Source: Owenia fusiformis (lineage: Eukaryota > Annelida > Polychaeta > Sabellida > Oweniidae). From it: a DNA stretch of 64,000 nucleotides. Below are positions 7,611-60,423 of this stretch, in pieces. The stretch is from assembly GCA_903813345.2 (NCBI GenBank), contig CAIIXF020000001.1:33252866-33316865 (forward strand). Direction: 5' to 3'. Both the position numbers and the translations under genes were made by a program. The notes under the pieces are model-generated. The model was not told the origin of the DNA, searched no databases, and worked only from the letters and a program-made list of their open reading frames with translations. Positions within the stretch are counted from its first letter, which is position 1; each line of letters begins with the position of its first letter.

Positions 7611-7725
7611 CCCAGTTGTCCGAAACCCAGTTGTCCGAAACCCAGTAGTCCGAAACCCAGTAGTCCGAAACCCAGTTGTCCGAAACCCAATTCTCCAAAA
7701 CCCAGTTGTCTGAAACCCATTACTC
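7611..7725 (+). repeat. 15-bp minisatellite in the left terminal repeat
   Basis: Seven to eight units of CAGTTGTCCGAAACC occur with small changes (GTAGTCC, TTCTCC). The inverse array is at about 16312-16395. Equivalent arrays are at 33981-34065 and 35117-35210 in the sister element. Confidence 0.85.
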
Positions 7726-15785: not shown

Positions 15786-16398
15786 ATATTCTGTCACGCA
15801 AACAAACGGGTGTGACTTCAATTTCTTGTCTGTCTGAGGATGTATTAGGAACGAGGTAGAATTAAAGAATTCTTATGAAAGAGTCATGCAAGATACTAGA
15901 ACTAGTAAAGTAATGTATTGGATAAGTTAATTTCTGATGGATTTTGATAAAATATGTTTCAAAACTTTGTCAACAATATAGATAACTACATTTAGGCAGG
16001 TATAGTATCTTGATATATTTGGCTATCATGCGTTTAAAGTACGTTCCTAAAACTATGAAGAGGTTAGGTGAGAAATATTGCTATTGTACGTTCGAAAAGT
16101 ATTTGGTTGTATTTTGTAGTTCTCAAGTTACCCATGAACTTTCGTAGGCTAAACATTAAATAATTAACATCTTGACTTAGCATATTTAGCCTAATTTTGC
16201 AATGATGTCAACGTGATTCCAATGTTATGTTGTTGTGATTCGCAGAGGTTGCGACAAGATTCGTTTTAAGACATTGTATTTTTAGATAAGATCCCCTAAT
16301 TTTCAGAGAACTGGGTTTCGGACAACTGGGTTTCGGAAAACTGGGTTTCGGAGAATTGGGTTTCGGACAGCTGGGTTTCAGACAACTGGGTTGACCCC

Positions 16399-17220: not shown

Positions 17221-18535
17221 TGCCTTATGGGCATAGGACATCTTTATAGTGACTATGTTGAAATACTAGACAAAAAGTATGATTTTCTTTCCTGGATAAA
17301 AGTAAACATTCCAAACAATGATCCCATTTTGATAGCCACTGTTTATTTTCCCCACAAGAAATCATGCTTCAATATACTTGATGTTTTTGAAATTCTTGAA
17401 ACTGAAATAGCAATAGCACAAAGCAGAACCTCAAACATTTATATATGTGGAGATTTTAATGCAAGAACTGTGAAAAAGGCAGATTATGAAATTCAAGTTT
17501 TTGGTTGTGACAGTGAACTTAGTCATTTCTTGCCTATACTCAATAACATGTCACTCCTTATAGATAGAGCATCGAGGGATAAAAATAATCAGGAAATACA
17601 AAGAACAAATGGCAAAGAACTTTTAGAATTATGTAAAACAGCAAATATGCAAATAGCAAATGGTAGGGTAGGAGCAGACAAAAATATTGGTAAATACACC
17701 TGCATCAGAACCAATGGAGCAAGTGTAGTAGACAATATAATTGGGTCAAGTAAACAGCTTTAAAATTCAGTCAAAATTACCAGAATCAGACCATTGTCCC
17801 ATTTCATTTTCAATTCTGGTTCCAAATCTATCATCTTTTTGTGAGTCAAATAAAAACTGTTTAACAGATTTACATACTAACTTTACTAAATTTAAATGGG
17901 AGGAATCCAAATCAATTGCTTTTCTATCAAATCTTAAAGCACCATTTTGCAAATCAATACTTAATGAAATACCACTTGATCTTAAAGACAAGGGTTGCCA
18001 AATAGAACATATAGTAGATAAACTAAATATGAGACTCTCACTTGCAGCAGAAAATGTATTTGTCCTAACAAAAGTAACAAATAATAAAATTACTGAGTTC
18101 CCTGCAAATAAATGGTTTGATGACAATGTAAAAGTCTGAAATCGAAAATTCACAAAGCGGAAGCATTAGGTGTTGAAACAAGTGCTCTTCATAAAGAATA
18201 TAATAGTCACAAGCAAAAATGTAAGCGCCACTTCCACAATACTATGTATAATGACCTATTAAACAGCCTAAATGATAACCCAACTTAGTTTTGGAATATA
18301 CTCAACTCAACCCGAGAAACTAACAAAGAATGTGTTAAAATACTTGGAAAAATATTTGAAAGTGTCCTTCATAATAGACTTGAATATTATACGGTATCTA
18401 ACAAAAAACAAGACAAACTATAAGGTGCATATGAACAGTTAAGTAGAACAGCTGATAATCTGTTTATTTTAAATAATTTAATAGAAAATTATTTATTGAT
18501 CTAAAAAAGCATTTGACTTATATATTGATAGATAG
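17221..18535 (+). mobile_element. LINE fragment: endonuclease and start of reverse transcriptase (broken)
   Basis: The frame at 17227-17763 encodes an APE-type endonuclease segment with ICGDFNAR and a following VDNII. After a frame change it continues at 17741-18139 with LPESDHCPISF, the SDH motif of the family. The downstream text has several stops but still shows NLFILNNLIEN and DLKK-type sequence near 18470-18525, which belongs to the reverse-transcriptase palm. It is truncated at the 5' side near 17221 and interrupted at about 18536. The thumb at 18976-19440 probably belongs to the same element. Clade is not assigned. Confidence 0.75.
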
Positions 18536-18975
18536 AAACCACGGTATATAACCCAAACGCTCCTACATGCACGACGGAGCGTTACATTTACGCGGAAACG
18601 CTCCGGAGCGAAATAAAATGGCGGCTAGTGAAGACTCTACTATGACAGTAAGTATTGTTTCTCTCGTTTCTCTTACATATCATATGTCATGGTGAAATAT
18701 TATGTACCATTCGATGAACAATACCGTGAGCAAAGATCTTATTTATTCAACTTCTGGTGGTAAACTGTTATTTGCTTGATCAAAGTATATTCTCATTTCC
18801 TAAAATCCCAGTCCAAATCCATTACTTGTTCTCGAGAAATCGCTTATTTTCCTCGAAACGCTCCGTCGATTTAGACCACAATTTTAGAAACGCTCTTACC
18901 ATTTTGTTTTGATATCATTTTCAGATTATTAGAGAAGAGTTCCGAATCGAATCTATCTCTCAAAAAAAATTTCAT
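18536..18975. other. Segment replacing the LINE palm domain
   Basis: A segment with several AAACGCTCC/GGAGCGTTT repeats and a CpG-rich start (18556-18620) stands where the reverse-transcriptase core should be. It includes AAAATGGCGGCTAGTGAAG followed after 30 bases by a GTAAGT donor-like site. No clear terminal repeats or target duplication were found. It may be an insertion, or a short host segment joined by rearrangement. Confidence 0.4.
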
Positions 18976-19440
18976 ATTCAATCCTCAATCAAATAATTGA
19001 AGAAGTCTCAGAGTATAAATATCTAGGCTGCATTCTTTCTGACAAAAATCACAAGTCAAACTCAAACCACTTGACCCAAAAAGCAACCAAAGCCATTTTT
19101 AAACTAGTAGGTTACTACAAGGTACTTGGCAATCTACCAGTAGATGTAGCACTAAATCTGTTTGATAAGTTGATTCTACCAATTTTGGAATATGGTAATG
19201 AGGTACTTGCACAACCTAAAACCTTTGATATTATAGAAAAGTTACAATCGCGATTCTTAAAAGAACTCTTACATGTTAAAACACAAACTTCAAATCTGGC
19301 AATACTTGGTGAGTTTGGAAGATACCCCCTTACTATAAGAATGAAAGTTCAGAAAATAAAATACTGATGTTGACTACTTACACTTCAATCTCAACATAAA
19401 CTGGACATATCACGTGATATAATGGAGTAAAGTAAAAAAA
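18976..19440 (+). mobile_element. LINE fragment: reverse-transcriptase thumb
   Basis: The frame shows IIEEVSEYKYLGCILSD, then KATKAIFKLVGYY and LFDKLILPILEYGNEV, ending near KVQKIKY at 19367. YKYLG followed by the LPILEYG-type block is the usual order after the palm in APE LINEs. It is probably the continuation of the element that starts at 17221, after loss of its palm. Confidence 0.7.
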
Positions 19441-19599
19441 TTGAGACCCTGAAATGGCAGATTTATGATGTAAATTGAACAATTCGGGCTATATGAACTA
19501 AACACAGAGCGATACGAAAACATATTGGATTGGAGATATCTACACACAAATTAGGCTAAAATACAAACATGAGCGTACAAAATCTAACCCAGAAGGATA

Positions 19600-20560
19600 T
19601 CAAAAGTTTCTTTGTCAACGAAATCCAAGATGGCGCCGAAAAAATTCAAAAAGTAATGAACGGGAAACTCAACCAAAAAAGCGTCGATATGTGAGCGCAT
19701 GCGATTCAAGATACAGCGAGCATAATAATCAAACAATGGAAGCACAAACTACTGATTCTGAACTGTCTATGGACGATGAAATGTCGACGGCGTAATTTCC
19801 AAAACCTGCTCTGAAGATGAGCAAACTATCGTCAGACGTCCAGATGATGATGTTGGTGCCATAACTAAAAGTTGGATGTTGAAAATGTTTGCTGCACAAG
19901 AGAAAGCCATGGAAAAGAAAATGAAGTCGACTGTCAGTAAAGCTGTAGCCAGGGCTATCGGGGCCACAAATAGAAGGCATATAGAAAACGAAAATAAGAC
20001 TCTGAAAAGTGACGTACATCTCCTTTATGATAAGATAAATCAACTGACTGAAGACTGTAATCACAACGCTCAGTATTCACGAAAGAATACAGTGAGAATA
20101 CTTGGTATACCCGAGCCAGATGCCCGCAACGTTTCCAGAGAAGACTGCAAAATATCTGTCTGTCAGAATCCCAATATTCTGGAGAAAATTCCCGGAGTGA
20201 TCTCACCAGACGACATCGAGGTAATGCATAGGCTGGGTACATATTCGGAGTCTAGTAGATACCCCAGACCCATCATCGTGAAGTTCAAATTCCGTGGTGC
20301 AAAGGACAACTTGATACAACGTCGCAGAGGACTCAAGGGTACGAATGTAATCATCTACGAAGACCTGAGCCCTTGGAATAGAAAACTACTATACGACCTA
20401 AAACAAAACCCTGAGATAGATCAGGCATGGAGCGCCAATGGCAAAATCCTAGGTAAAGAGAGGTGATATAGCAAACTTGACAGTAACCAGTGACATTGAC
20501 TCTGTCATCCAAGCCAGGTTGAGGGTACCTAGGGATCGTAATGCCAGATGAATGAATGCC
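19600..20560 (+). pseudogene. L1-like ORF1 protein relic
   Basis: The open part (19876-20466) has a coiled-coil-like stretch (ENENKTLKSDVHLLYDKINQL), then YSRKNTVRILGIPEP, then an RRM-like region with RPIIVKFKFRGAKDNLIQRRR and NVIIYEDLSPWNR. This order is that of L1-type ORF1 (Transposase_22) proteins, which bind the element RNA. An N-terminal piece in another frame ends near 19795 (PKKRRYVSACDSRYSEHN). After 20456 the frame changes and continues as RGDIANLTVTSDID. At least two frameshifts disable it. No matching ORF2 follows directly. Confidence 0.75.
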
Positions 20561-20566
20561 AGATAA

Positions 20567-20813
20567 TGAACAGATTCTTTTGAATTTTTCAGAAAATGTG
20601 CCCAACATATTGCTGTAAATAATACAATCTTTGAAAATTTGATATCATTCATGGAAAAAGAAAAAAAAAGAAAAAAAAGATTTGAAAAGCGATTTATTTT
20701 CCTTTTTATGACTGCCATTTTTGTTTGAGACAATTTTCTAAAATTTCAAAGATTGTATCAGTTACAGCATTATATTGGGCACATTTTCTGAAAAATTCAA
20801 AAGATTCTGTTCA
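20567..20813. mobile_element. 247-bp foldback element
   Basis: Two inverted arms of about 75 bp (TGAACAGATTCTTTTGAAT..., CAGAAAATGTGCCCAA, TACAATCTTTGAAA) flank an A-rich centre with a GAAAAAAAAAG run. No flanking duplication was recognised. It is non-coding. Confidence 0.75.
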
Positions 20814-21144
20814 GTGACTTTCCCTTGCCCCTACTTTTAGCTTTTTTTCAGTCACACTTTCAAAGGGCTAAAAAGGTTAGTTCCTCATGTTTAGGGTCAT
20901 TCTGACCCTGCACATTGTGATCCTGGACCTGTAAATGGTATTTGGAACTAGTTGAATTGACTGGAGGTCAAAACAGAACTTTGTTCAAAAAATGTCTAAA
21001 AATGCACAAAAAATTGTCACTTCCTGTTTTGTCATTTCCTGTTAACTTCCATAGCACCTTAATAGATTTAGAGCTGGTCTGATTCTAAAATCTCATCTAC
21101 ATATGTATATGCCCATAACTTTGCGACAGTAAATGACCCATTTT
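20814..21144. other. Stretch without recognised gene
   Basis: AT-rich DNA with two short echoes (CACTTCCTGTTTTGTCATTTCCTG). It is neither the LINE text expected to precede 21652 nor a match to another repeat in the window. Confidence 0.4.
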
Positions 21145-21645
21145 CAGGCCTGTCAACTTGGGAACACCTAACATGAGTGACTTGGAAATGTTGAACACCT
21201 CCCCTCAAAATGTGGACACCTTGGTCCAAATCTGAACACCTTGATCCAAATTTTGAACACCTTGGTTTAAATTTCATTACATCTTGCCAAATTTTGAACA
21301 CCTCAAATTTTTCGCGCTCGTCGCGCTCGAGTTTCAAACATCCATCAACGGGGGGGGGGGGGGGGGGGGGTGGTACGAAAAATTTCGAACGGAATGCGTG
21401 ACATATACGTAATTCGCGTGTAAAGTCCGAACGAAATGCGTACATTTTTTTCCGGCGTTCGTATTTTTGCTGTGTAGACAATCTTTTCTAGAAATTTTTC
21501 TACAGAAATATTTTTGCTTGACAATTACCAGGTAAAATGCGTATTTGCGTGACATTTTGTGTCACGCAAAAATAACTGGCGTGACTTCAAATTCTTCAGC
21601 AAATGCGTGACAAATACGCAAATTGCGGGACAGTTGACAGGCCTG
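21145..21645. mobile_element. Family F element, complete 501-bp copy
   Basis: The inverted ends are CAGGCCTGTCAACT and AGTTGACAGGCCTG. CATTTT lies on both sides (21139-21144 and 21646-21651). The interior has a 21-bp minisatellite (CACCTTGGTCCAAATCTGAA), a 20-base G-run near 21351-21370 and GACAATTACCAGGTAAAATGCG. It is non-coding. Confidence 0.8.
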
Positions 21646-21651
21646 CATTTT

Positions 21652-22065
21652 GTATATGTGGTGCTAAACAGCAAACAACATATCACTTTTTCTTAAACTG
21701 CCCTCTGCTGCAACAAGAAAGATGCACTCTCCTAGCAGGACTAAAAACCTTAGGATTTCTCAACAGTTTCCAAAACTTTAACTCCAATGAAAAAATTCAA
21801 TTTTTATTATTTGGAGAGAGAAATCTAACAGTAATGGAGAATGAACAAATTATTCAAATAGTTAGCCATTACATCTGTTTAGCTCTTGATATTTTAGATT
21901 AAACCCCCCCCCCCCAAAGGCCTCTAACATTTTTCACCATCCATATTGCTGACCAAATCTATTGTATTTCCAATATTTCCAGTTTGACATGTTTTGTATA
22001 TTGCCGACAATGTTGAAAAACTTAGGCAATAATATTGTATTGTATTTTTATATATTATATATGGA
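21652..22065 (+). mobile_element. LINE 3' fragment: C-terminal zinc-binding motif and tail
   Basis: The frame ending at 21901 encodes FCICGAKQQTTYHFFLNCPLL, a C-x-C...H...C motif near the end of many APE-LINE ORF2 proteins, then about 60 residues to the stop. The 3' region has a C-run and ends in TATTGTAT-rich sequence. It may be the tail of the LINE begun at 17221, but intervening insertions prevent proof. Confidence 0.65.
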
Positions 22066-22069
22066 ATAA

Positions 22070-23290
22070 ATGAGAAATGGAAAAAAGCAAAAAAAACATA
22101 AACTTAATAAATCATATCAACAGAACCTCCAAATCTATCATTGCGGTGGTAAATCGTGGGTGTCCCAAATCTATAATATTCACAAAGAATGTGATTTCCA
22201 AGACATGTGGGACAATCATAATAAGGCTGTCATTGATATTCAATCATATTTAAGTTTACCTGGAAAAGTATCTAATAAACTAAGATATCTTTATAAAAGA
22301 AAGGATTATCTGTCAAAAAAAGCTTCCAAAATGACTGGTTACATGAGGTATACATTAGCCAAGCATAACAATGTTAACAGGCTTAATTTTGGACAAAGTA
22401 TTTACAGAACCATGGTTCTCCCAGCTCTGACACATGGCTGTGGTGTCTGGCTGGTCAATAAAACTAGTAAGCAAGTCCTTAAGTCAGCTCAATATAACCT
22501 TGCAAGAGCACTCCTACAACTTCGATGTAAACCAGCCACAAATGCCCTTTTTGGTGACTTGGGCTGGACACCAATCATGCGTGAAATTGAAGACAAACAA
22601 ATTGAATATTTCACATACCTCAAGATGAACACACGAAACAGCCTTTTAAATGTAGTTTTTCAAAGTATGCTTCAATGTCATAACCAAGGCAAAATATTAT
22701 CTTGGAAATATATGAATAATGTGCATGATATTTTAATGGACAGGGGTCTTGAAGGTGTTATGTTCCGAAATGATGTGGATTGGGTCCATTCATATAAGGT
22801 CATTTCGGATGATCAAGATATCTTTAATTTTCAAGAAAAGATTGGAACCCAGTCTTCACTTAGTTTTTATAAGGATGTCAAACAACACCCTGGTATGGAG
22901 CTATATATGAACAATAAAAATGATTTTTACCTTACCCAGCTTAAATTTAGAGCCAGGACTGGCTGTTTTATGTTACAGGCTGATTTAGAAAGATGGGGCA
23001 AAGGAACTGGCATTTGTCTATTATGCAATGATGAATGTAGGGATGACCTACGTCACAGATTGCTTAGATGTCATTTTTTCATTCCTGAACGCCTTGCCCT
23101 ATTCAATGATTTTAAATCAACACTTCCATCTCCTGTATGGAATGAATTTTTAACCTTACCAGAAGACTCAAAACTACATTGGCTGCTTGGTAATGATGTA
23201 TTTTTGAATTATGGGCATGAAATTGGTTTTAAATTTGATTCTCTTACCAAGAGATTTTTAAACAAAGTTTATATTAAATTGAAAGATTGA
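22070..23290 (+). CDS. LINE ORF2 C-terminal half (406 codons, intact frame)
   Basis: The open frame covers the thumb region (FGQSIYRTMVLPALTHGCGVW, about residues 106-126) and a C-terminal zinc motif (CLLCNDECRDDLRHRLLRCHFF, about residues 323-344), as in APE-type LINE proteins. Endonuclease and catalytic palm are absent, so this is a 5'-truncated insertion with no catalytic function; the first ATG is incidental. The 3' UTR is about 80 bp and ends in an AATAATAATAA tail, which is the site of the next insertion at 23370. The uninterrupted frame suggests a younger insertion than its neighbours. Confidence 0.75.
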   Translation: MRNGKKQKKHKLNKSYQQNLQIYHCGGKSWVSQIYNIHKECDFQDMWDNHNKAVIDIQSYLSLPGKVSNKLRYLYKRKDYLSKKASKMTGYMRYTLAKHNNVNRLNFGQSIYRTMVLPALTHGCGVWLVNKTSKQVLKSAQYNLARALLQLRCKPATNALFGDLGWTPIMREIEDKQIEYFTYLKMNTRNSLLNVVFQSMLQCHNQGKILSWKYMNNVHDILMDRGLEGVMFRNDVDWVHSYKVISDDQDIFNFQEKIGTQSSLSFYKDVKQHPGMELYMNNKNDFYLTQLKFRARTGCFMLQADLERWGKGTGICLLCNDECRDDLRHRLLRCHFFIPERLALFNDFKSTLPSPVWNEFLTLPEDSKLHWLLGNDVFLNYGHEIGFKFDSLTKRFLNKVYIKLKD

Positions 23291-23369
23291 TTGTAAAATG
23301 TTTTATATATGTAAAGCACCCTTTTGAGGTGTGCCACCGTTATAAAGGTGAATAAAATAATAATAATAA
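23291..23369 (+). other. LINE 3' UTR with AATA repeat tail
   Basis: The text GTAAAGCACCCTTTTGAGG, GTGCCACCGTTATAAAGGTG ends in an AATAA(TAA)n tail, typical of LINEs that end in a short tandem repeat. Confidence 0.65.
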
Positions 23370-25184
23370 CTAGAGGTTTAAGATTGCAAGCAATCTTAAG
23401 GAGGCCCCGTAGGCTTTTTTGAACATTTAAAGGTCAGCCAAAGGTCAAATCTTAAATACAAGGTCATAAATGAACTTCAGGCATCTTGTTGATGATTTTT
23501 TAAAAAAGTTTGGTCAATTTGAAGCAATGTGAAATTTGACCTTGAAAAATTTCAACATTAGACCTTTTTCAATTTTTGAGGTCCAATATCTCAAAACTGG
23601 TGCAGAATTTTAATAGATAATCAATTGTTAATATGTGTAAAACCTTTAGAGGAATATATATCCTGACTATAATTAAAAAAATATTGACTTGTAGTCACAA
23701 ACTTTGAGAAACTTAGAAAACACAGTTTGTGATCTTGTTTGATGACCTTGACCTTTGACCTTGAAAATTTTACTTTTTAGACCTCAGTATATCTTTTCTG
23801 ATTGAATAAACCTAAATTTGAATCCAGAAAATCAATTTGAAAAATCAACTTTTTTGACCTTTCGAAGGTCACTGAAGGTCAACTAAAGGTCATAGGTCAA
23901 AACTAAGGTCAGATTTGAGTTCCTGAGATCTTGTAGATGCTTTTTAAAAAAAGTTTGGTCAATTTAGAGCAAGTTGAAATTTGACCTTGAAAAATTTCAA
24001 AATTTGACCTTTTTTCAGTTTTTGAGTTCTAATATCTCAAAACTGGAGCAAAATTTTAATAAATAGTCAATTGCTAATATGTGTAGAGCCTTTAGAGGAA
24101 TATATATTCTGACTTTCAGTAAAAAAAATTGATTTGTAGTCTCCAATTTTGAGAAACTTAGAAAACACAGTTTGTGATTTCGTTTGATGTCCTTCACCTT
24201 TGACCTTGCAAATTTTACTTTTTTAGACCTCAGAAGGTCTTTTGTGAATGAATATACCTAAATTTGAATCCAGAAAATCGATTTGAAAAATCAACTTTTT
24301 TGACGTTTCGGAGGTCACTGAAGGTCAACCAAAGGGCAAAGGTCAAAAGTAAGATCAGATTTGGAATCCTGAGAACTTGTAGATGAGTTTTAAAAAAAAT
24401 TTGGTCAATTTGAAGCAAGTTGAAATTTAGCCTTTAAAAGTTTCGAAATTTGACCTTTTTTCAGTTTTTGAGTTCTAATAACTCAAAACTGGTAGAGAAT
24501 TTTAATAAATAGTCAATTGCTAATATGTGTAGAACCTATAGAGGAATATATATCCTGACTTTTATGAAAAAATATTGATTTGTAGTCACCAATTTTGAGA
24601 AACTTAGAAAACACAGTTTGCGATTTAGTTATATGACCTTGACCTTTGACCTTGCAAATTTTACTTTTTTAGACCTCAGTGGGTCCTTTGTGATCAAATA
24701 TACCTAAATTCGAATCCAGAAAATCAATTTGAAAAAACAACTTTTTTAACCTTTCGAAGGTCACCGAAGGTCAACCAAAGGTCGGAGGTCAAAAGTAAGG
24801 ACATATTTGAGTTCCTGAGATCTTGTAGATGATTTTTAAAAAAAAATCTGGTTCATTTGAAGCAAGTTGAAAAATGACCGATTTTTGCCGATTTTTGACT
24901 TCAAATATCTCAAAAACGGTAAAAAATTAACGCGTACATATAGTGAGCAATTTGTAGAGAATGCTTATATCTAGTTACATTTTAATTCATCGCAAGAAAT
25001 AATGAAGTATAAGGACGAAATCTGAGAAACTTAAAAAAAACTTTGATTTGACCTAGATTTTGACCTTTGACCTTGACCTAGATAAAAATTCCTTTCCACC
25101 CAAGTTCAGCCAAGGTCCCTGGTAGGTGCATGAAGGAGATGGTTAAAAGTTAGTTGGAAGTAGGAGAAAAGGGTTTAGGAAGAA
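23370..25184 (-). mobile_element. Helitron-like (HINE-type) unit 1, 5' end missing
   Basis: Read on the minus strand, the 3' end is CTAG followed by T-rich target (23370-23373). It is preceded by the hairpin AGATTGC-TT-GCAATCT (23381-23396) and, just inside, GGGGCCTCC. A hairpin a few bases before a CTRR-type end is the Helitron hallmark. The body is degenerate repeats with dense TGACCT/AGGTCA. The terminal GGAGGCCC hairpin expected at the other end is absent; unit 2 starts directly. Confidence 0.6.
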
Positions 25185-27097
25185 CTAGACTTTTGAAGAT
25201 TGCAAGCAATCTCACGGAGGCCCTCTTAGGCATTTTTGACAATTTGAAGGTCAACTAAAGGACAAATATCAAATCTGAGGTCAGATGTGAACTCCTAAGA
25301 ACTTGTAGATGATTTTGAAAAAAACGATTTTGTCAATTTGAAGTGAGTTTAAATTTGACCTTAAAAAATTTCGAAAGTGACCTTTTTTCAACTTTTGAAC
25401 TCTTATATCTCAAACTGGGACAAAATTCTATTAGATAGTCAATTGCTAATATGTGTAGAACCCTTAGAGGAATGTGTATATTTCAACTTCGGATTAAAAA
25501 TATTGGTTTGTAATCTCGAACTTTGCAAAACTTAGATAGCACAGTTTGTGACCTAATTTCATGATCTTGACCTTTGACCTTGAAAAGTTTTACTTTTTTA
25601 GACCTCAGTAGGTCTTTTGTAATTAGGCTGACCTAAATTTGAATCCAAAGACTCAATTTGAAAAATCAACTTTTCTTACCATTCGAAGGTCATTGAAGGT
25701 CAACTAAAGGTCAAAGCTCAAATCTGAGGTCAGCTTTGGATTCATGGGAAGTTGTAGATGATTTTTAAAAAAAAATTGGTCAGATTGAAGCAAGTTGAAA
25801 AATGACATTTTTCGACCGTTTTTTGACGTCAAATATCTCAAAAACGGTAAAAATTTAATGCTGACATCTAGTGAACAATTTGTAGAAAATACTAAAATGT
25901 AGTTTCAGTTAAATTCATAGCAAGAAATAATGAAGTATAAGGACAAAGTTGAGAAACTTAAAAAAAAAAAAGATTTGACCTAGATTTTGACCTTTGACCT
26001 AATTTGATAACCTTGACCCTTGACCTTGAAAATATAACTGTTTTAGAGCTCAGTAGGTCTTTTATGCTTAGGCTAACCCTAAATTTGAATCCAAAAACTC
26101 AATTTGAAAAATCAACTTTTCTGACCTTTCGAAGGTCACTGAAGGTGAACTAAAGGTCAAATGTCAAATTCGAGGTTAAATATGAACTCCTGAGAAGTTG
26201 TAGATGATTTTTAAAAAAAAGTTTGGTTAATTTGAAGCAAGTTAAAATTTGACCTTGTAAACTTTGAAAAATTGACCTTTTTCAGTTTTTGAGCTCTTAT
26301 ATCTCAAAACTTGGACAAAATTTTAATAAATAGTCAATGACTAATATGTGAAGAACCCTTAGAGAAATGTATATCTTGACTTTCAATTAAAAATATTGAT
26401 TTGTAGTCTTGAATCATGAGAAACTTAGATAGCACAGTTTGTGACCTAATTTGATGACCTTGACCTTTGACCTTGAATTTTTTACTTTTTTAGACCTCGG
26501 TAGGCTTTTTGTAATTAAACTGACTTAAATTTGAATCCAAAGACTCAATTTGAAAAATCAAATTTTCTGACCTTTCGAAGGTCACTGAAGGTCAACTAAA
26601 GGTCAAAGGTCAAATCTGAAGTCAGATTTGGACTCCTGGGAACTTGTAGATGATTTTTAAAAAAAAATTTGGTCAGATTGAAGCAAGTTGAAAAATGACC
26701 TCTTTTGACCGTTTTTTGATGTCAAATATCTCAAAAACGGTAAAAATTTAATGCTGACATATAGTGAACAATTTGTAGAGAATACTTAAATGTAGTTTCA
26801 GTATAATTCATCGCAAGAAATAATGAAGTATAATGACAAACTTGAGAAACTTGAAAAAAAGCTTAGATTTGACCTAGATTTTGACCTTTGACCTTGACCT
26901 AGATAAGAAATATTTTCCCATCAAGATCAAACCAGGTCTCTAGTAGGAGCATATAGTAGAAAGTTGAAAGCTAGTTGAAAGTAGGAGAAAACTGCTTTGA
27001 TAGAATAATAAGAAGAAGAATAAGAATAAAGAAGAATAAAGAAAAGCTACAAAAGCTATAGGAGGCCCTTTCAGGAGGGCCTCCTAATAAAGAATAA
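25185..27097 (-). mobile_element. Helitron-like (HINE-type) unit 2
   Basis: The minus-strand 3' end is CTAG at 25185-25188, with its hairpin at 25197-25212. The 5' end is the palindrome AGGAGGCCC...GGGCCTCCT at 27060-27085. Between them are repeats of TTTGAATCCAAAGACTCAAT, TCTCAAAAACGGTAAAA and AGGTCA-rich blocks. The 5' palindrome arm recurs inverted just inside the 3' hairpin, the asymmetric layout described for Helentron-type elements. No Rep/helicase coding is present. Confidence 0.65.
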
Positions 27098-29363
27098 CTA
27101 GAGACCAAGATTGCAAGCAATCTTTAGGAGGCCCCGTGATTGCCCAATTAAATGACCTTGACATGGTCACCATTTTGCTCAATTAGGCAAGAATATCACA
27201 ATTCACATTTCAATGTATCTAAATATAACATATGAACAAAATCGCTTCATTACTTTATGAGTTAAAGGGGAAAATGTAATGTGAGATAAAATTAGGCGCC
27301 ATTTTTCAAGATGGCTGCCATATTCATGAAAAAGTCAAAAAGATCATCAGTCTTGTTTCCACATAACCTAAATATAAAATATGAACTAAATTTGTTTCAT
27401 TTCACTTTTTTGAGTTATAGTAAAAAACGTAATGTAAGACAAAATGGGCACCATTTCCAAGATGGCCACGTTTTGGTCAATTCTTGACTTTTTCTATGTA
27501 TTGTATGTAAGAATCAGAAATACATTTAGCTGCATTTAAACTACATTAATATAACACACAAGAAACAAAGACTGGGGGCCATTTGAGGAGATGTTTGATG
27601 GGATTTGGTATGCCGTGGTATTGCAGTTTTCTAGTTGTGGTATTAACAATTGAAAATTCTTTGATTTTGGTGAACATGCATTTGTTATTTTATTAGGTTT
27701 GAATTTAATTTCAGACTGAGCTACACGCCCAAGATGTGTAGAACATTTAAAGGAAGATATATCCTAACTTTCATCCAACAATATTGATTTATAGTCACAA
27801 ACTTTACCTTAAAAAACAGAGTTTGTAATTTGATTGGATGACCTTGACCTTTGACCTTGCGAATTTTACTTTTTTGACCACAGTAGGTCTTTTAATAATT
27901 AAGTATACCTAAATTTGAATCCAGAAAAACAATTTGAAAAATCAACTTTTTTGACCTATCCAAGGTCACTGAAGGTCAACCAAAGGTCAAAGGTCAAAAC
28001 CAAGGTCAGATTTGAACTCCTGACAATTTGTAGATGTTTTTAAAAAGAAAGTTTGGTCAATTTAGAGCAAGTTAAAATTTGACCTTGAAGAATTTCGAAA
28101 TTTGACATTTTTTCAGTTTTTGAGTTCTAATTTCTCAAAACTGGTGCAAAATTTTAATAGATAATCAATTGCTTATATGTGTAGAACCATTAGAGGAATA
28201 TATATCCTGACTTTCATTCAAAAATATTGATTTGTAGTCACAAACTTTGAGAAACTTAGAAAACACAGTTTGTGATCTTGTTTGATGACCTTGACCTTTG
28301 ACCTTGCGAATTTTACTTTTTTAGACCTCAGTATGTCTTTTCTGATTAAATACACCTAAATTTGAATCCAGAAAATCAATTTGAAAAATCAATTTTTTTG
28401 ACCTTTCGAAGGTCACTGAAGGTCAACTAAAGGTCATAGGTCAAAATTAAGGTCATATTTGAGTTCCTGAGATCTTGTAGATGCTTTTAAAAAAAAAGTT
28501 TGGTCAATTTAGAGCAAGTTGAAATTTGACCTTGAAAAATTTCGAAATTTGACCTTTTTTCAGTTTTTGAGTTCTAATATCTCAAAACTGAAGCAAAATT
28601 TTAATAAATAGTCAATTGCTAATATGTGAAGAACCTTTAGAGGAATATATATTCTGACTTTCAGTAAAAAAAATTGATTTGTAGTCTCCAATTTTTAGAA
28701 ACTTAGAAAACACAGTTTGTGATTTCGTTTGATGACCTTGACCTTTGACCTTGCAAATTTTACTTTTTTTGACCTCAAGAGGTCTTTTGTGAATAAACAT
28801 ACCTAAATTTGAATCGAGAAAATCGATTCGAAAAATCAACTTTTTTGACCTTTCGGAGGTCACTGAAGGTCAACCAAAGGTCAAAGGTCAAAAGTAAGGT
28901 CAGATTTGGAATCCTGATAACTTGTAGATGAGTTTTGAAAATAAATTTGGTCAATTTGAAGCAAGTTGAAAAAAGACCTTTTTTGACCTTTTTTTGACCT
29001 TCAATATCTCAAAATCTAGGCAAAATTTCTCTAGACGGCAAAAGGCTAAGACTAATAGAATACTAATATCTATCTGTATGCAAAAATTCAGCCAAAAATA
29101 TTGAAGTGTAGTGTCAGGATTTGAGAAACTTGAAAAAAACTTAGATTTGACCTAGATTTTGACCTTTGACCTTGACCTAGATAAGAATTCCTTTCCCGCC
29201 AAGTTCAGCCAAGGTCCCTAGTATGACTATGTAAGAGCTAGTTGAAAGCTAGTTGGAAGTAGGAGAAAAGGTCCCGGGAAGAATAAATAAAGAATAATAA
29301 AGAATAATATCTACAAAATTAATAGGAGGCCCCTGCCGGGGGGCCTCCTAATAATAATAATAA
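27098..29363 (-). mobile_element. Helitron-like (HINE-type) unit 3, hybrid body
   Basis: The 3' end is CTAG at 27098-27101 with its hairpin at 27108-27123; the 5' palindrome is at 29324-29349. The stretch 27125-27735 is unlike the other units. It carries GTGAATAC/GATGGCTGCC-type text related to family B in reverse, and GATGGGATTTGGTATGCC near 27598, like a family B right end. From 27735 the AGGTCA-rich body resumes. Confidence 0.62.
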
Positions 29364-31313
29364 CTAGACTTTTGAAGATTGCAAGCAATCTCACGGAGGC
29401 CCTCTTAGGCATTTTTGACAATTTGAAGGTGTGAACTCCTGAGAACTTGAAGATGATTTTCAAAAAAAGATTTTGTCAATTTGAAGCGAGTTTAAATTTG
29501 ACCTTGAAAAATTTCGAAATTGACCTTTTTTCAACTTTTGAACTCTTATATCTCAAACTGGGACAAAATTCTATTAGATAGTCAATTGCTAATATGTGTA
29601 GAACCCTTAGAGGAATGTGTATATTTCAACTTCGGATTAAAAATATTGGTTTGTAGTCTTGAACTTTGCGAAACTTAGATAGCACAGTTTGTGACCTAAT
29701 TTCATGATCTTGACCTTTGACCTTGAAAAGTTTTACTTTTTTAGACCTCAGTAGGTCTTTTGTAATTAGGCTGACCTAAATTTGAATCCAAAGACTCAAT
29801 TTGAAAAATCAACTTTTCTTACCTTTCGAAGGTCATTGAAGGTCAACTAAAGGTCAAAGCTCAAATCTGAGGTCAGCTTTGGACTCATGGGAAGTTGTAG
29901 ATGATTTTTTTTAAAAAAAATTGGTCAGATTGAAGCAAGTTGAAAAATGACATTTTTCGACCGTTTTTTTGACGTCAAATATCTCAAAAACGGTAAAAAT
30001 TTAATGCTGACATCTAGTGAACAATTTGTAGAAAATACTAAAATGTAGTTTCAGTTTAATTCATCGCAAGAAATAATGAAGTATAAGGACAAAGTTGAGA
30101 AACTTAAAAAAAATTAGATTTGACCTAGATTTTGACCTTTGACCTAATTTGATAACCGTGACCCTTGACCTTGAAAATATAACTGTTTTAGAGCTCAGTA
30201 GGTCTTTTTTGCTTAGGCTAACCCTATATGTGAATCCAAAAACTCGATTTGAAAAATCAACTTCACTGACCTTTCGAAGGTCACTGAAGGTCAAGTAAAG
30301 GTCAAATGTCAAATCTGTGGTAAAATATGAACTCCTGAGAAGTTGTAGATGATTTTTAAAAAAAATTGGGTGAATTTGAAGCAAGTAAAAATTTGACCTT
30401 ATAAACTCTGAAAAATTGACCTTTTTCAGTTTTTGAGCTCTTATATCTCAAAATTGGGACAAAATTTTAATAAATAGTCAATTGCTAATATGTGTAGAAC
30501 TCTTAGAGGAATGTATATCTTGACTTTCAATTAAAAATATTGATTTGTAGTCTTAAACTATGAGAAAGTTAGATAGCACAGTTTGTGACCTAATTTGATG
30601 ACCTTGACCTTTGACCTTGAAATTTTTACTTTTTTAGACCTCAGTAGGCTTTTTGTAATTAGACTGACCTAAATTTGAATCCAAAGACTCAATTTGAAAA
30701 ATCAACTTTTCTGACCTTTCGAAGGTCACTGAAAGTCAAATAAGGGTCAAAGGTCAAATCTGAGGTCAGATTTGGACTCCTGGGAACTTGTAGATGATTT
30801 TTTAAAAAAAATTTGGTCAGATTGAAGCAAGTTGAAAAATGACCTTTTTTGACCGTTTTTTGACGTCAAATATCTCAAAAACTGTAAAAATTTAATGCTG
30901 ACATATAGTGAACAATTTGTAGAGAATACTTAAATGTAGTTTCAGTTTAATTCATCACAAGAAATACTGAAGTATAAGGACAAACTTGAGAAACTTGAAA
31001 AAAAACTTAGATTTGACCTAGATTTTGACCTTTGACCTTGACCTAGATATGAAATATTTTCCCATCAAGATCAAACCAGGTATCTAGTAGGAGCAGAAAG
31101 TTGAAAGCTAGTTGGAAGTAGGAGAAAACTGCTTTGATAGAATAATAATAAGAATAAGAATAAGAAGAAGAATAAAGAAAAGCTACAAAAGCTATAGGAG
31201 GCCCTTTCAGGAGGGCCTCCTAATAATATCTATAAAATTAATAGGAGGCCCCCCGTTTGGGCCTCCTAATAATATCTATAAAATTAATAGGAGGCCCCCC
31301 GTTGGGGCCTCCT
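29364..31313 (-). mobile_element. Helitron-like (HINE-type) unit 4 with tripled end hairpin
   Basis: The 3' end is CTAG at 29364-29367 with its hairpin at 29376-29391. It is nearly the same as unit 2 but lacks about 40 bases near 29428. The 5' palindrome is present three times, at 31196-31221, 31243-31267 and 31289-31313, spaced 46-47 bp. Repeated terminal hairpins are known in rolling-circle elements. Confidence 0.65.
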
Positions 31314-32614
31314 AATAAAAGCCAATGGTTTGCCCTTATAAACAACCACTCTAAAAGCCCGTGCCTTAGAACATACTCAATATTTGAATTAGCCTTTAAG
31401 AAAGAACCATTTTTAATGATAAAAAATGGCAAACTTAGAAATATATTAGGTAAAATAAGAAAGGTCAACATAAAAAGAAAAATGGACAAAAAATGCAATT
31501 AGAGGGGGTAAAAAGTCATGAAATATTATGTAGGTTTGGTGGACATGGCAGATTTGCCATTAGACAGAATTTGCTTACAATGTAACATGAACCAAATTGA
31601 AGATGAATTGCATTTAATTTTTACTGCCCTGCCTGTTCAAGCCAAAGATCAATATTTTTCAAAACACTAGCCCAATAAATCTCAATCAGTAATACACCCC
31701 CCAACATTTTAATAAAAGAAATCATGAACAGCAAAATTAAAATACTGAAAGAACTTATAATAATAAGATCATAATATGTACAGGGTGTCCCGAAAGTATG
31801 GGGCCCCCCTAGGCAGACATATACCAGTGCGTCATAGTATGTGTCATATATTATTTTAAAGCTTATCCAAAGTTATATTATGGTTCAACTCTCAAATGTG
31901 AAAAAATTACAGGCATTTCAAAATTTGGTGTTTGGTCAAAATTAAGTTCAATTTTACACCAAATCACTAGTCAATGTGTCCTCCCGGGCCATCTTAACAG
32001 CAGCAATTCTTTTCGGGTCGGAGGGATATTGAGTTGGAAAAAGAGAACGGTGAGGGTAGAATCTCTAAGGAAACTCTTCTAAAGTTCCTTAACAGGTTTT
32101 AAGAGGGTTATAAAATTCCACACCCCTATTTGAAGGGCTTTTAAGGTCATATCTGAAAATAATTGCTGCTGTTAACATGGCCAAGGGGGGACACATTGAC
32201 TAGTAATGTGGTGTAAAATTGAACTTTATTTTGACAAAACACTAACTTTAAAATGACTGTAACTTTTTCCCATTTGGGAGTTGAACCATGATACTTGGCA
32301 AATCAATGTAACTTTGTATAAGCTTTAAAATGATATATGACACATACTATGAGGACACTTGAATATGTCTGCCTAGGGGGGGGGCATACTTTCGGGACAC
32401 CCTGTATATAATGTAACAATTTTTGTAAGTCTATGGTACCATTATCTTAATAACATATTTGGTGTAACTATTTTCATAGTTTTACATATGACTGATGACT
32501 ATTATATACTGTACACAAAAATAAAACATGTAAAAACTGTATAGTGACCCATATGTCGGAGAAACTGACATGTTTCAAAGTCAATAAAAGATATATATAT
32601 ATATATATATATAA
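31314..32614 (+). mobile_element. LINE 3' fragment with TA-repeat tail
   Basis: Near 31570-31650 the frame encodes ICLQCNMNQIEDELHLIF, a C-terminal zinc motif of APE LINEs. Upstream, a frame at 31330-31500 gives KSPCLRTYSIFELAFKKEPF. The 3' end is (AT)n at about 32588-32614. It is broken by stops and frame changes, and split by the element at 31781-32404. It belongs to a different family from the one at 22070 (different zinc motif and tail). Confidence 0.65.
31781..32404. mobile_element. 624-bp palindromic mariner-type element
   Basis: The ends are CAGGGTGTCCCGAAAGTATG and its inverse. TA flanks at 31779-31780 and 32405-32406. The inversion continues inward for over 200 bp on each side (CATTTGGGAGTTGAACC, CACCAAATCACTAGTCAATG, TTAACAGCAGCAATT), so the whole element folds back with a loop near 32020-32150. 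Ends of the type CAGGGTGTCCC with a TA target are typical of Tc1/mariner relatives. It is non-coding. Confidence 0.85.
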
Positions 32615-33970: not shown

Positions 33971-35217
33971 AGGGTAAACCCAGTTGTCCAAAACCCAGTT
34001 GTCCGAAACCCAGTTGTCCGAAACCCGATTCTCCGAAACCCAGTTCTCCGAAACCCAGTTCTCCGAAAATTAGGGGATCTTATCAAAAAATACAATTTCT
34101 TAAAACGAATCTTGTCGCAACCTCTGCGAATCACGACAGCATAACATTTGAATCATGTTGACATCATTGCAAAATTAGGCTAAATATGCTAAGTCAAGAC
34201 GTTAATTAGCCCACGAAAGTTCATGGGTAACTTGAGAACTACAAAATACAACCAAATACTTTTCGAACACACAATAGCAATATTTCTCACCTAACGTCTT
34301 CATAGTTTAATTTAGGAACGTATTTTAAACGCATGATAGCCAAATATATCAAGATACTAATGAAGTTATCTAGTGTTGACAAAGTTTTGAAATATATTTT
34401 ATCCAGATCCATCAGAAATTAATCCAATACATTACTTTACTAGTTCTAGTATCTTGCATGACTCGTTCATAAGAATTCTTTAATTCTACCTCGTTCCCAA
34501 TACGTCCTCAGACAGACAAGAAATTGAAGTCACACCCGTTTGTTTGTGTGGCATATTTATACGTATACGCACTTTCTCTGATTACTGTCAAACAAATACA
34601 TTTCAGGAGAAGAACATAAAAAACAAATGCCTGAAACGAATGCCGAAACATAAATCCCAAGTGATTAAGTTTAGAATGTTTTATTCTTTTACGATTTGAT
34701 AAGAGACCGAGACTAAGAAATTAAATGCGACAAAATATTTTGACAACGTAATTTGTATACTGTTTTATTCTTAGACTTAAAGTTCTATGCGAACTTATTT
34801 TATCTGTTTCAAAATGTTTCATTTTATTTTGCCTATATAAAAGAGATTGAAGAAGATAAGATAAACTGTTCCGTAATATATATTGTGTTTTAATAACCTT
34901 TTTTAGAATCACAATGTAAAATAAATCTCCTGTTCCTGCCATTCTGGTAACGCCATGCAATGGAGAGAGAGAGAGAGAGAGAGAGAGATCTATGAATATC
35001 AGAATGCGTCCATGTCATTAATTTGGCCAAATACATGGCATGAAACTGACGTAAGCTTAAGTAAGCTACGCCCCCCCCTTTCTCTGGTAAATTATGACTT
35101 TATTTTTCGGAGTAATGGGTTTTGGACAACTGGGTTTCGGGGAATTGGGTTTCGGACAACTGGGTTTCGGAGAACTGGGTTTCGGACAACTGGGTTTCGG
35201 AGAACTGGGGTGTACCC
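33971..35217. mobile_element. Mutator-like foldback element, 1.25-kb copy
   Basis: The terminal repeats GGGTAAACCCAGTTGTCC and the inverse of GGGTACACCCCAGTTC each contain the 15-bp minisatellite. ATATTAAAC flanks at 33962-33970 and 35218-35226 (9-bp target duplication). The interior matches the two non-cargo parts of the 7603-16398 element in reverse order, without its nested insertions. A (GA)n run at about 34962-34988 is private to this copy. It has no transposase. Confidence 0.85.
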
Positions 35218-59865: not shown

Positions 59866-60423
59866 TTATCCCATCGAACGAAGTTAGTGGAGCGATTTTG
59901 TTCATATTTGGTATGTGAATACTTTAAGCATGACACAATGTCTAATGACATTTTTGGTAGTAGGTGGCCATTTTTCAAAATGGCCGCCATTTTTACGTGT
60001 GTTATTTAACATTTTTTACTGTAAGTCAAAAAGTAGATGAGTGATTTTGTTCATATTTGGTATGTGAATACTTTAAGCATGGCTGAATGTCTAATGACAT
60101 TTTGGGTAGTAGGTGGCCATTTTTCAAAATGGCCGCCATTTTTACGTGTGTTATTTTACATTTTTTACTATAACTCAAAAAGTAGTAGAGCGATTTTGTT
60201 CATATTTTATATGTGAATACTATAAGCATGGTACACTGTCTAATGACACTTTGGGTAGTAGGCGGCCATTTTGAAAAATGGCCACCATTTTTTACGTTTT
60301 TTACTATAACTTGAAAAATAGTGGAGTGATTTTGTTCAGATTTGATATGTGAATACTTATGAACCTTGCACACTGTCTCATGACACTTCGCGTAGAAGGT
60401 GGCGATTTAGAAAAATGTTTTTT

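What the first reader, a model, noticed from the sequence alone, without database searches (positions are those of the whole stretch)
23370..31313. Transposon array saturated with nuclear-receptor half-sites
Seen: in one 170-bp sample (28733-28902) there are ten perfect AGGTCA/TGACCT hexamers, including two one-base-spaced direct repeats, and similar blocks recur through about 7.9 kb. Known: AGGTCA is the half-site for nuclear receptors, and the one-base direct repeat is bound by RXR, HNF4 and COUP-TF types. Inference: each copy of this mobile family could spread receptor sites or act as a sink for receptors.
Basis: partly seen in the sequence, partly recalled or inferred. Interest (0 to 1): 0.75.

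Follow-up and report, generated by a model that had tools for sequence, protein, structure and literature searches.

The report
Helentron-type transposons packed with receptor half-sites
Four copies of a non-coding rolling-circle transposon carry 137 copies of a DNA word that hormone receptors recognise, and related transposons have spread that word in close pairs through the animal's genome; whether receptors really bind there is untested.

Summary
23370-31313 has 137 perfect AGGTCA/TGACCT against 3.9 in dinucleotide shuffles. Redundancy does not explain it: one 445-bp consensus unit has 11 against 0.21, without an excess of one-mismatch sites.

The region (23368-31319, minus strand) is four head-to-tail copies of an element with the plan of a non-autonomous Helentron (HINE). 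Genome-wide, AGGTCA pairs with spacing 0-8 number 48,685 against 1,307 for the reversed control. Of 28 pair loci looked at, 20 belong to related families. DR1, DR4-5 and everted repeats are strongly enriched, DR2-3 hardly.

Between two diverged families a block of three half-sites is 90.5% identical, its flanks 44-48%. The within-family test for constraint is only suggestive (p 0.02 to 0.08), and substitutions inside half-sites do not favour receptor-tolerated ones. A hairpin role found no support. The genome encodes HNF4-, ROR- and RXR-like DNA-binding domains.

Most likely the half-sites serve the element, perhaps by recruiting host receptors. Binding, sink action and gene effects could not be tested. 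New variant of a known kind.

The parts
23368..31319 (-). Head-to-tail array of four HINE-like element copies
   Evidence: recurrent ends and junctions; 137 half-sites in 23370-31313
23368..25182 (-). copy 1, 30 half-sites; lacks the 5' hairpin module
25183..27095 (-). copy 2, 35 half-sites
27096..29361 (-). copy 3, 38 half-sites; 27140-27730 inside it is sequence unlike the repeat unit
29362..31319 (-). copy 4, 34 half-sites
23380..23407 (-). 3' palindrome AAGATTGC/GCAATCTT and 3' subterminal repeat GGGCCTCC of copy 1; the same in copies 2-4 at 25196-25223, 27107-27134 and 29375-29402
   Evidence: 4 of 4 copies
31197..31312 (-). 5' module of copy 4: three hairpins GGAGGCCC-loop-GGGCCTCC (31197-31220, 31244-31266, 31290-31312); one each at 29325-29348 (copy 3) and 27061-27084 (copy 2)
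   Evidence: 3 of 4 copies
29148..29178 (-). 5'-proximal block of four half-sites in 31 bp (DR6, DR1, DR0); the same 31 bases at 25049-25079, 26870-26900 and 31014-31044
   Evidence: identical in 4 of 4 copies; part of it conserved between families

Best explanation
The region is four head-to-tail copies of a non-autonomous Helentron-like element (HINE) on the minus strand, presumably moved in trans by Helentron or Helitron proteins. Its tandem core and a block near its 5' end are built around AGGTCA half-sites that tend to be kept while the families diverge. I infer that the half-sites serve the element: host nuclear receptors (candidates: HNF4, RXR, COUP-TF, ROR and ERR types) bind them and bring open chromatin or transcription in the cells where the element is copied; spreading receptor sites through the genome is a by-product. 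Shown: anatomy, copy spread, half-site excess, conservation of the block between two families. Inferred: the binder, the step it helps, any host effect.
For: Half-site excess without redundancy, 11 against 0.21, with 4 one-mismatch sites against 3.7 expected, so no halo of decayed sites in F1. The F1 x F2 block is 90.5% identical in flanks of 43.9% and 48.4%; half-site columns 99.0%, other block columns 77.3%. The triple AGGTCANAGGTCAN6AGGTCA occurs 3,610 times against 0 control. Pooled intact fraction of half-sites exceeds control hexamers in 5 of 5 divergence bins. Tree-based internal/terminal comparison: odds ratio 1.53, p 0.024. HNF4-, ROR- and RXR-like domains are encoded. Mammalian receptors bind half-sites and many spacings (PMC6555819, passages). 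HINE plan.
Against: No binding data. With masks that also include sites present in only some units the constraint test weakens to odds ratio 1.36 (p 0.079) and 1.35 (p 0.061). In the 15-25% divergence bin the median half-site (0.37) is below the median control (0.40). Substitutions inside half-sites do not favour RGKTCA: 16 of 142 single-change cells, against 2 of 18 types. F3 does show one-mismatch sites in excess, 5 against 1.3. No single spacing dominates. Rolling-circle elements that encode nothing have no obvious need of a promoter. One autonomous Helitron locus examined (of 58 matches) shares no end.
Confidence: 0.45

Rival explanations
1. Passive satellite: the HINE core descends from an AGGTCA-rich sequence that rolling-circle copying and unequal exchange amplified and homogenised; receptors play no part.
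For: HINE cores are known to be satellite-like (PMC7492417, passages). The constraint tests are weak under inclusive masks. The spectrum of changes does not fit receptor tolerance. F3 has an excess of one-mismatch sites.
Against: The hexamer has sharp edges over 26 sites: largest flank value 0.79 bits. F1 and F2 show no one-mismatch excess. The half-site block survives between families whose flanks no longer align well.
Confidence: 0.33
2. The half-site is a landing site for a Helentron-encoded protein or for a host DNA-binding protein other than a nuclear receptor.
For: Position in related elements and conservation between F1 and F2 would fit a cis-signal of transposition; 58 Helitron_like_N matches exist.
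Against: The one autonomous locus examined has no half-site cluster next to its open frame: 3 half-sites in 7,001 bases (L094), 0 in 3,001 (L096), and the 30 of L095 lie in or near a separate F1 piece. A second, unrelated repeat carries the palindromic form.
Confidence: 0.15
3. The copies have been taken over by the host as receptor sinks or enhancers.
For: Large numbers; an F3 copy lies beside a RAR-like exon (L051).
Against: Private changes in half-site columns of F1 copies are not depleted (0.591 against 0.309 per column) and the terminal-branch rate is only a little lower (1.14 against 1.44), so little sign that single copies are kept by the host.
Confidence: 0.05
4. The inverted half-sites form a hairpin that is the real feature.
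For: TGACCTTnnnAAGGTCA is common: ER0-8 13,355 against 152, spacer 5 in 93 of the 100 places listed.
Against: Of 243 alignment cells in which an F1 stem pair departs from the consensus, 0 restore pairing. Direct-repeat pairs, which form no such hairpin, are more numerous.
Confidence: 0.02

Closest known systems
HINE / DINE-1 non-autonomous Helentrons (PMC4067079) and Cg_HINE of Crassostrea gigas (PMC7492417)
   Same: Subterminal inverted repeats, inverted copy beside the 5' one, microsatellite, satellite-like core, 3' palindrome, no target duplication seen, head-to-tail copies
   Different: 8-bp subterminal repeat instead of 11-13 bp; core saturated with AGGTCA, which the passages I read do not mention; autonomous partner not found
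Alu-DR2 retinoic acid response elements (PMC1785376)
   Same: A transposon family multiplies consensus receptor sites genome-wide (108,582 DR2 in human, 90% in Alu; abstract)
   Different: One DR2 motif that arose largely by CpG decay, with ChIP support for several elements; here 11 half-sites in a 445-bp consensus unit, several spacings, DR2-3 near background, no binding data
Satellite DNAs that bind transcription factors (recalled, no call)
   Same: Tandem arrays with repeated factor sites, proposed sinks
   Different: Dispersed through a transposon rather than in pericentromeric blocks

Membership tests
HINE (non-autonomous Helentron) | subterminal inverted repeats near both ends | tested here: met
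   GGAGGCCC at the 5' end (3 of 4 window copies) and GGGCCTCC at the 3' end (4 of 4); only 8 bp, shorter than the 11-13 bp described
HINE (non-autonomous Helentron) | inverted copy of the 5' subterminal repeat a few bases on, then a microsatellite | tested here: met
   GGAGGCCC-7 to 8 bases-GGGCCTCC, then TTATTCTT-type repeats
HINE (non-autonomous Helentron) | palindrome at the 3' end | tested here: met
   AAGATTGC/GCAATCTT in 4 of 4 window copies
HINE (non-autonomous Helentron) | no target-site duplication, insertion at TT | tested here: inconclusive
   no duplication at 4 loci with both outer flanks read (window, L069, L012/L013, L034); the T after CTAG was part of the search pattern; empty sites not sought
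HINE (non-autonomous Helentron) | autonomous Helentron partner with the same ends | tested here: inconclusive
   58 Helitron_like_N matches; 1 locus read towards both ends, no shared end
nuclear-receptor response element | AGGTCA half-sites in receptor-type pairs above chance | tested here: met
nuclear-receptor response element | changes limited to receptor-tolerated RGKTCA | tested here: not met
   16 of 142 single-change cells, no more than the 2 of 18 types; most changes may lie in dead copies
nuclear-receptor response element | occupied or bound by a receptor | not testable with these tools
   no chromatin or binding data

The most novel reading that the evidence does not exclude
A group of HINE families depends on host nuclear receptors as a cis-acting aid for its own multiplication, keeps half-site arrays under selection on the element, and has thereby laid down thousands of receptor platforms that shape receptor availability in this animal.
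Probability: 0.2. Interest if true: 0.8.

Novelty: new variant of a known kind. Interest (0 to 1): 0.5.

Why it matters
Transposons that carry transcription-factor sites are usually seen as accidental donors. Here the motif looks like the best-kept part of a fast-changing non-coding element, which makes it testable whether a DNA transposon uses host hormone receptors to multiply, and whether tens of thousands of decoy sites can buffer a receptor. It also warns that motif scans for receptor targets in such a genome will often return transposons.

Tried and rejected
Rejected: redundancy of one array as the cause (the single consensus unit keeps the excess); a hairpin role (0 of 243 cells compensatory); a DR1-only reading; the autonomous Helitron at C1:21.11 Mb as partner (no shared ends; the F1 piece some 9 kb past its open frame starts in mid-unit and looks like a separate insertion).

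Considered: a retroposon, because copies end in AATAAT-like tails and the array abuts a LINE-like region; the repeat-palindrome plan and lack of duplications fit HINE better. Species: the assembly size and 12 large contigs recall the annelid Owenia fusiformis; that is recall, and no call identified the organism.

Literature: searches listed no paper on half-site arrays in an invertebrate transposon; the library is open-access only. I saw passages of PMC4067079, PMC7492417, PMC6555819 and PMC1785376, and search listings for all others.

Limits: the 28 pair loci are not a random sample (the first 8 DR1 places listed and 20 picked from the first listed DR0-8 places, all on C1). The 30 unit loci are the best matches to one window unit. 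I dropped L009, L014, L015 and L028 as duplicates of the window or L069; L012/L013 and L024/L025 still overlap, so some of the 136 full units are counted twice; one search removed identical rows (123 left). One search's bins hold 274 of 298 hits (shorter ones, under 60 aligned positions, left out). CpG columns and A/T runs outside half-sites were left out. Genome counts are copies, not events.

Full report
Observation. Across 23370-31313 there are 137 perfect half-sites against 3.9 in shuffles; the pair classes seen (DR0, 1, 4, 5, 6, 7 and ER5) have shuffle means of 0.007 or less. The rest of the window has 0.39 and 0.18 per kb. In 175,222 bases not chosen for half-sites (30 receptor-gene loci, 6 Helitron pieces, the rest of the window) AGGTCA occurs 75 times against 69 for the reversed word; in the receptor loci alone 57 against 39.

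What it is. End motifs recur four times. Read on the minus strand, copies 2-4 have one or more 5' modules GGAGGCCC-loop-GGGCCTCC behind TTATTA, then a TTATTCTT-type microsatellite; copy 1 lacks both. All four have a core of about 446-bp tandem units, then GGGCCTCC, the palindrome AAGATTGC/GCAATCTT and an end CTAGTT. This is the plan published for HINEs, the non-autonomous Helentrons (PMC4067079 and PMC7492417, passages), which also have satellite-like cores and can stand head to tail. The 8-bp subterminal repeat is shorter than the 11-13 bp described. At the four loci where both outer flanks were read no duplication is visible. The genome has 58 Helitron_like_N matches, many in long open frames, so an enzyme source exists; the one locus read towards both ends shares no terminus.

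How widespread. A search with one unit gave 325 matches, a lower bound, since 40 of 1,736 candidates were scored. Genome-wide counts on both strands, with the reversed pattern as control: AGGTCA 371,059 / 221,124; DR0-8 48,685 / 1,307; DR1 7,059 / 122; DR2-3 939 / 525; DR4-5 24,278 / 313; by subtraction about 16,400 / 350 for DR0 and DR6-8; ATCTAGGTCA 11,129 / 677; the triple AGGTCANAGGTCAN6AGGTCA 3,610 / 0. Everted and inverted patterns are their own reverse complement, so one strand is given: ER0-8 13,355 / 152, IR0-8 2,721 / 150. Copies are counted, not independent events.

Families. Of 28 pair loci, 20 align to the window element or its relatives and 8 do not: L006, L071, L076, L083, L084, L085, L087, L088; L083 and L084 match L077 only beside its half-site part. 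From reading I call the window type F1; F2 has the 5' hairpin AGACTCCAGAT..ATCTGGAGTCT (L001, L003, L007, L008, L074, L081; L080 and L082 by similarity); F3 has TGTCACCACC..GGTGGTGACA and 135-148-bp units (for example L002, L005, L077, L086). I did not sort every one of the 20.

Are the half-sites kept? (a) The F1 consensus unit has 11 perfect and 4 one-mismatch sites, shuffles 0.21 and 3.7; one F2 copy 7 and 5 against 0.40 and 6.7; one F3 unit 4 and 5 against 0.07 and 1.3, so F3 shows a halo of near-sites. (b) Over 26 sites of these sequences the flanks carry at most 0.79 bits, mainly A after the site. (c) In F1-type hits the pooled intact fraction exceeds control hexamers in 5 of 5 divergence bins (0.940 / 0.777 under 5%; 0.367 / 0.166 at 25-45%), but single sites vary widely and in the 15-25% bin the median is lower than the control's. 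(d) Variants shared by six or more of 136 units are rarer in half-site columns (0.364 against 0.812 per column) while private ones are not (0.591 against 0.309); that count is biased where shared variants use up the possible states. (e) The tree-based version gives odds ratio 1.53 (p 0.024) and, with masks that include sites present in only some units, 1.36 (p 0.079) and 1.35 (p 0.061). (f) Between 4 F1 and 6 F2 sequences a 29-column block is 90.5% identical amid flanks of 43.9% and 48.4%; half-site columns 99.0%, other block columns 77.3%. One F2 row, L081, has lost part of the block. Together: constraint on the half-sites while the elements multiply is likely, not proven.

Who binds? The genome has 66 zf-C4 matches, many of them exon pieces. 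Best PDB matches are HNF4-alpha for L041, ROR-gamma for L039, and an EcR-USP construct followed by RXR-alpha chains for L046. COUP-TF, ERR, FTZ-F1, RAR, TR and NR4A-like domains among the translations are named by recall. Mammalian type II receptors bind half-sites and many spacings, and prefer A in a DR1 spacer (PMC6555819, passages); 94 of the 100 DR1 places listed have A there. But changes inside half-sites do not favour RGKTCA. Nothing here shows binding.

Verdict. A real and non-random feature of a known kind of transposon.

Noticed in passing
L097-L101 (C1, near 576.0, 603.8, 734.1, 990.0 and 1562.0 kb): Perfect palindromes AGGTCAnnnTGACCT (IR3, the estrogen-response-element form by recall): IR0-8 2,721 against 150 control, spacer 3 in 33 of the 50 distinct places listed. 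Of 6 places read, 5 lie in one dispersed repeat that does not match the HINEs.
   Followed up: partly
window 7611-7719, 16301-16392, 33976-34068, 35105-35209: Four separate arrays of similar 15-base units (CCCAGTTGTCCGAAA type), on both strands.
   Followed up: no
window 17227-23367: LINE-like region directly beside the array: a 178-aa frame with a near-threshold endonuclease match (PF14529, 27.0 bits, cut-off 27.4) and a 406-aa frame without a Pfam match; its A/T tail ends where the first HINE copy begins.
   Followed up: partly
window 27140-27730: Stretch inside HINE copy 3 that is unlike the repeat unit, with 1 half-site; parts resemble the GGCGGCCATTTT-type repeats at 59890-60417 by eye.
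   Followed up: no
L051 about 612-1123: An F3-type copy (80.7% to L086) beside an exon that I read as RAR-like by recall; 4 of 30 receptor-gene loci have three or more half-sites within 100 bp.
   Followed up: partly
L059 1597-1644: Four AGGTCA just after an ERR-like DNA-binding exon (named by recall), including a DR0; no match to the HINE set.
   Followed up: no
L076 and L088: A further repeat with 7 and 17 half-sites in 1.5 kb, 60% alike to each other, no match to the HINE set.
   Followed up: partly
G000:C1:49229-49576: AGGTCA every 38 bases ten times in a row, probably a short satellite (listing).
   Followed up: no
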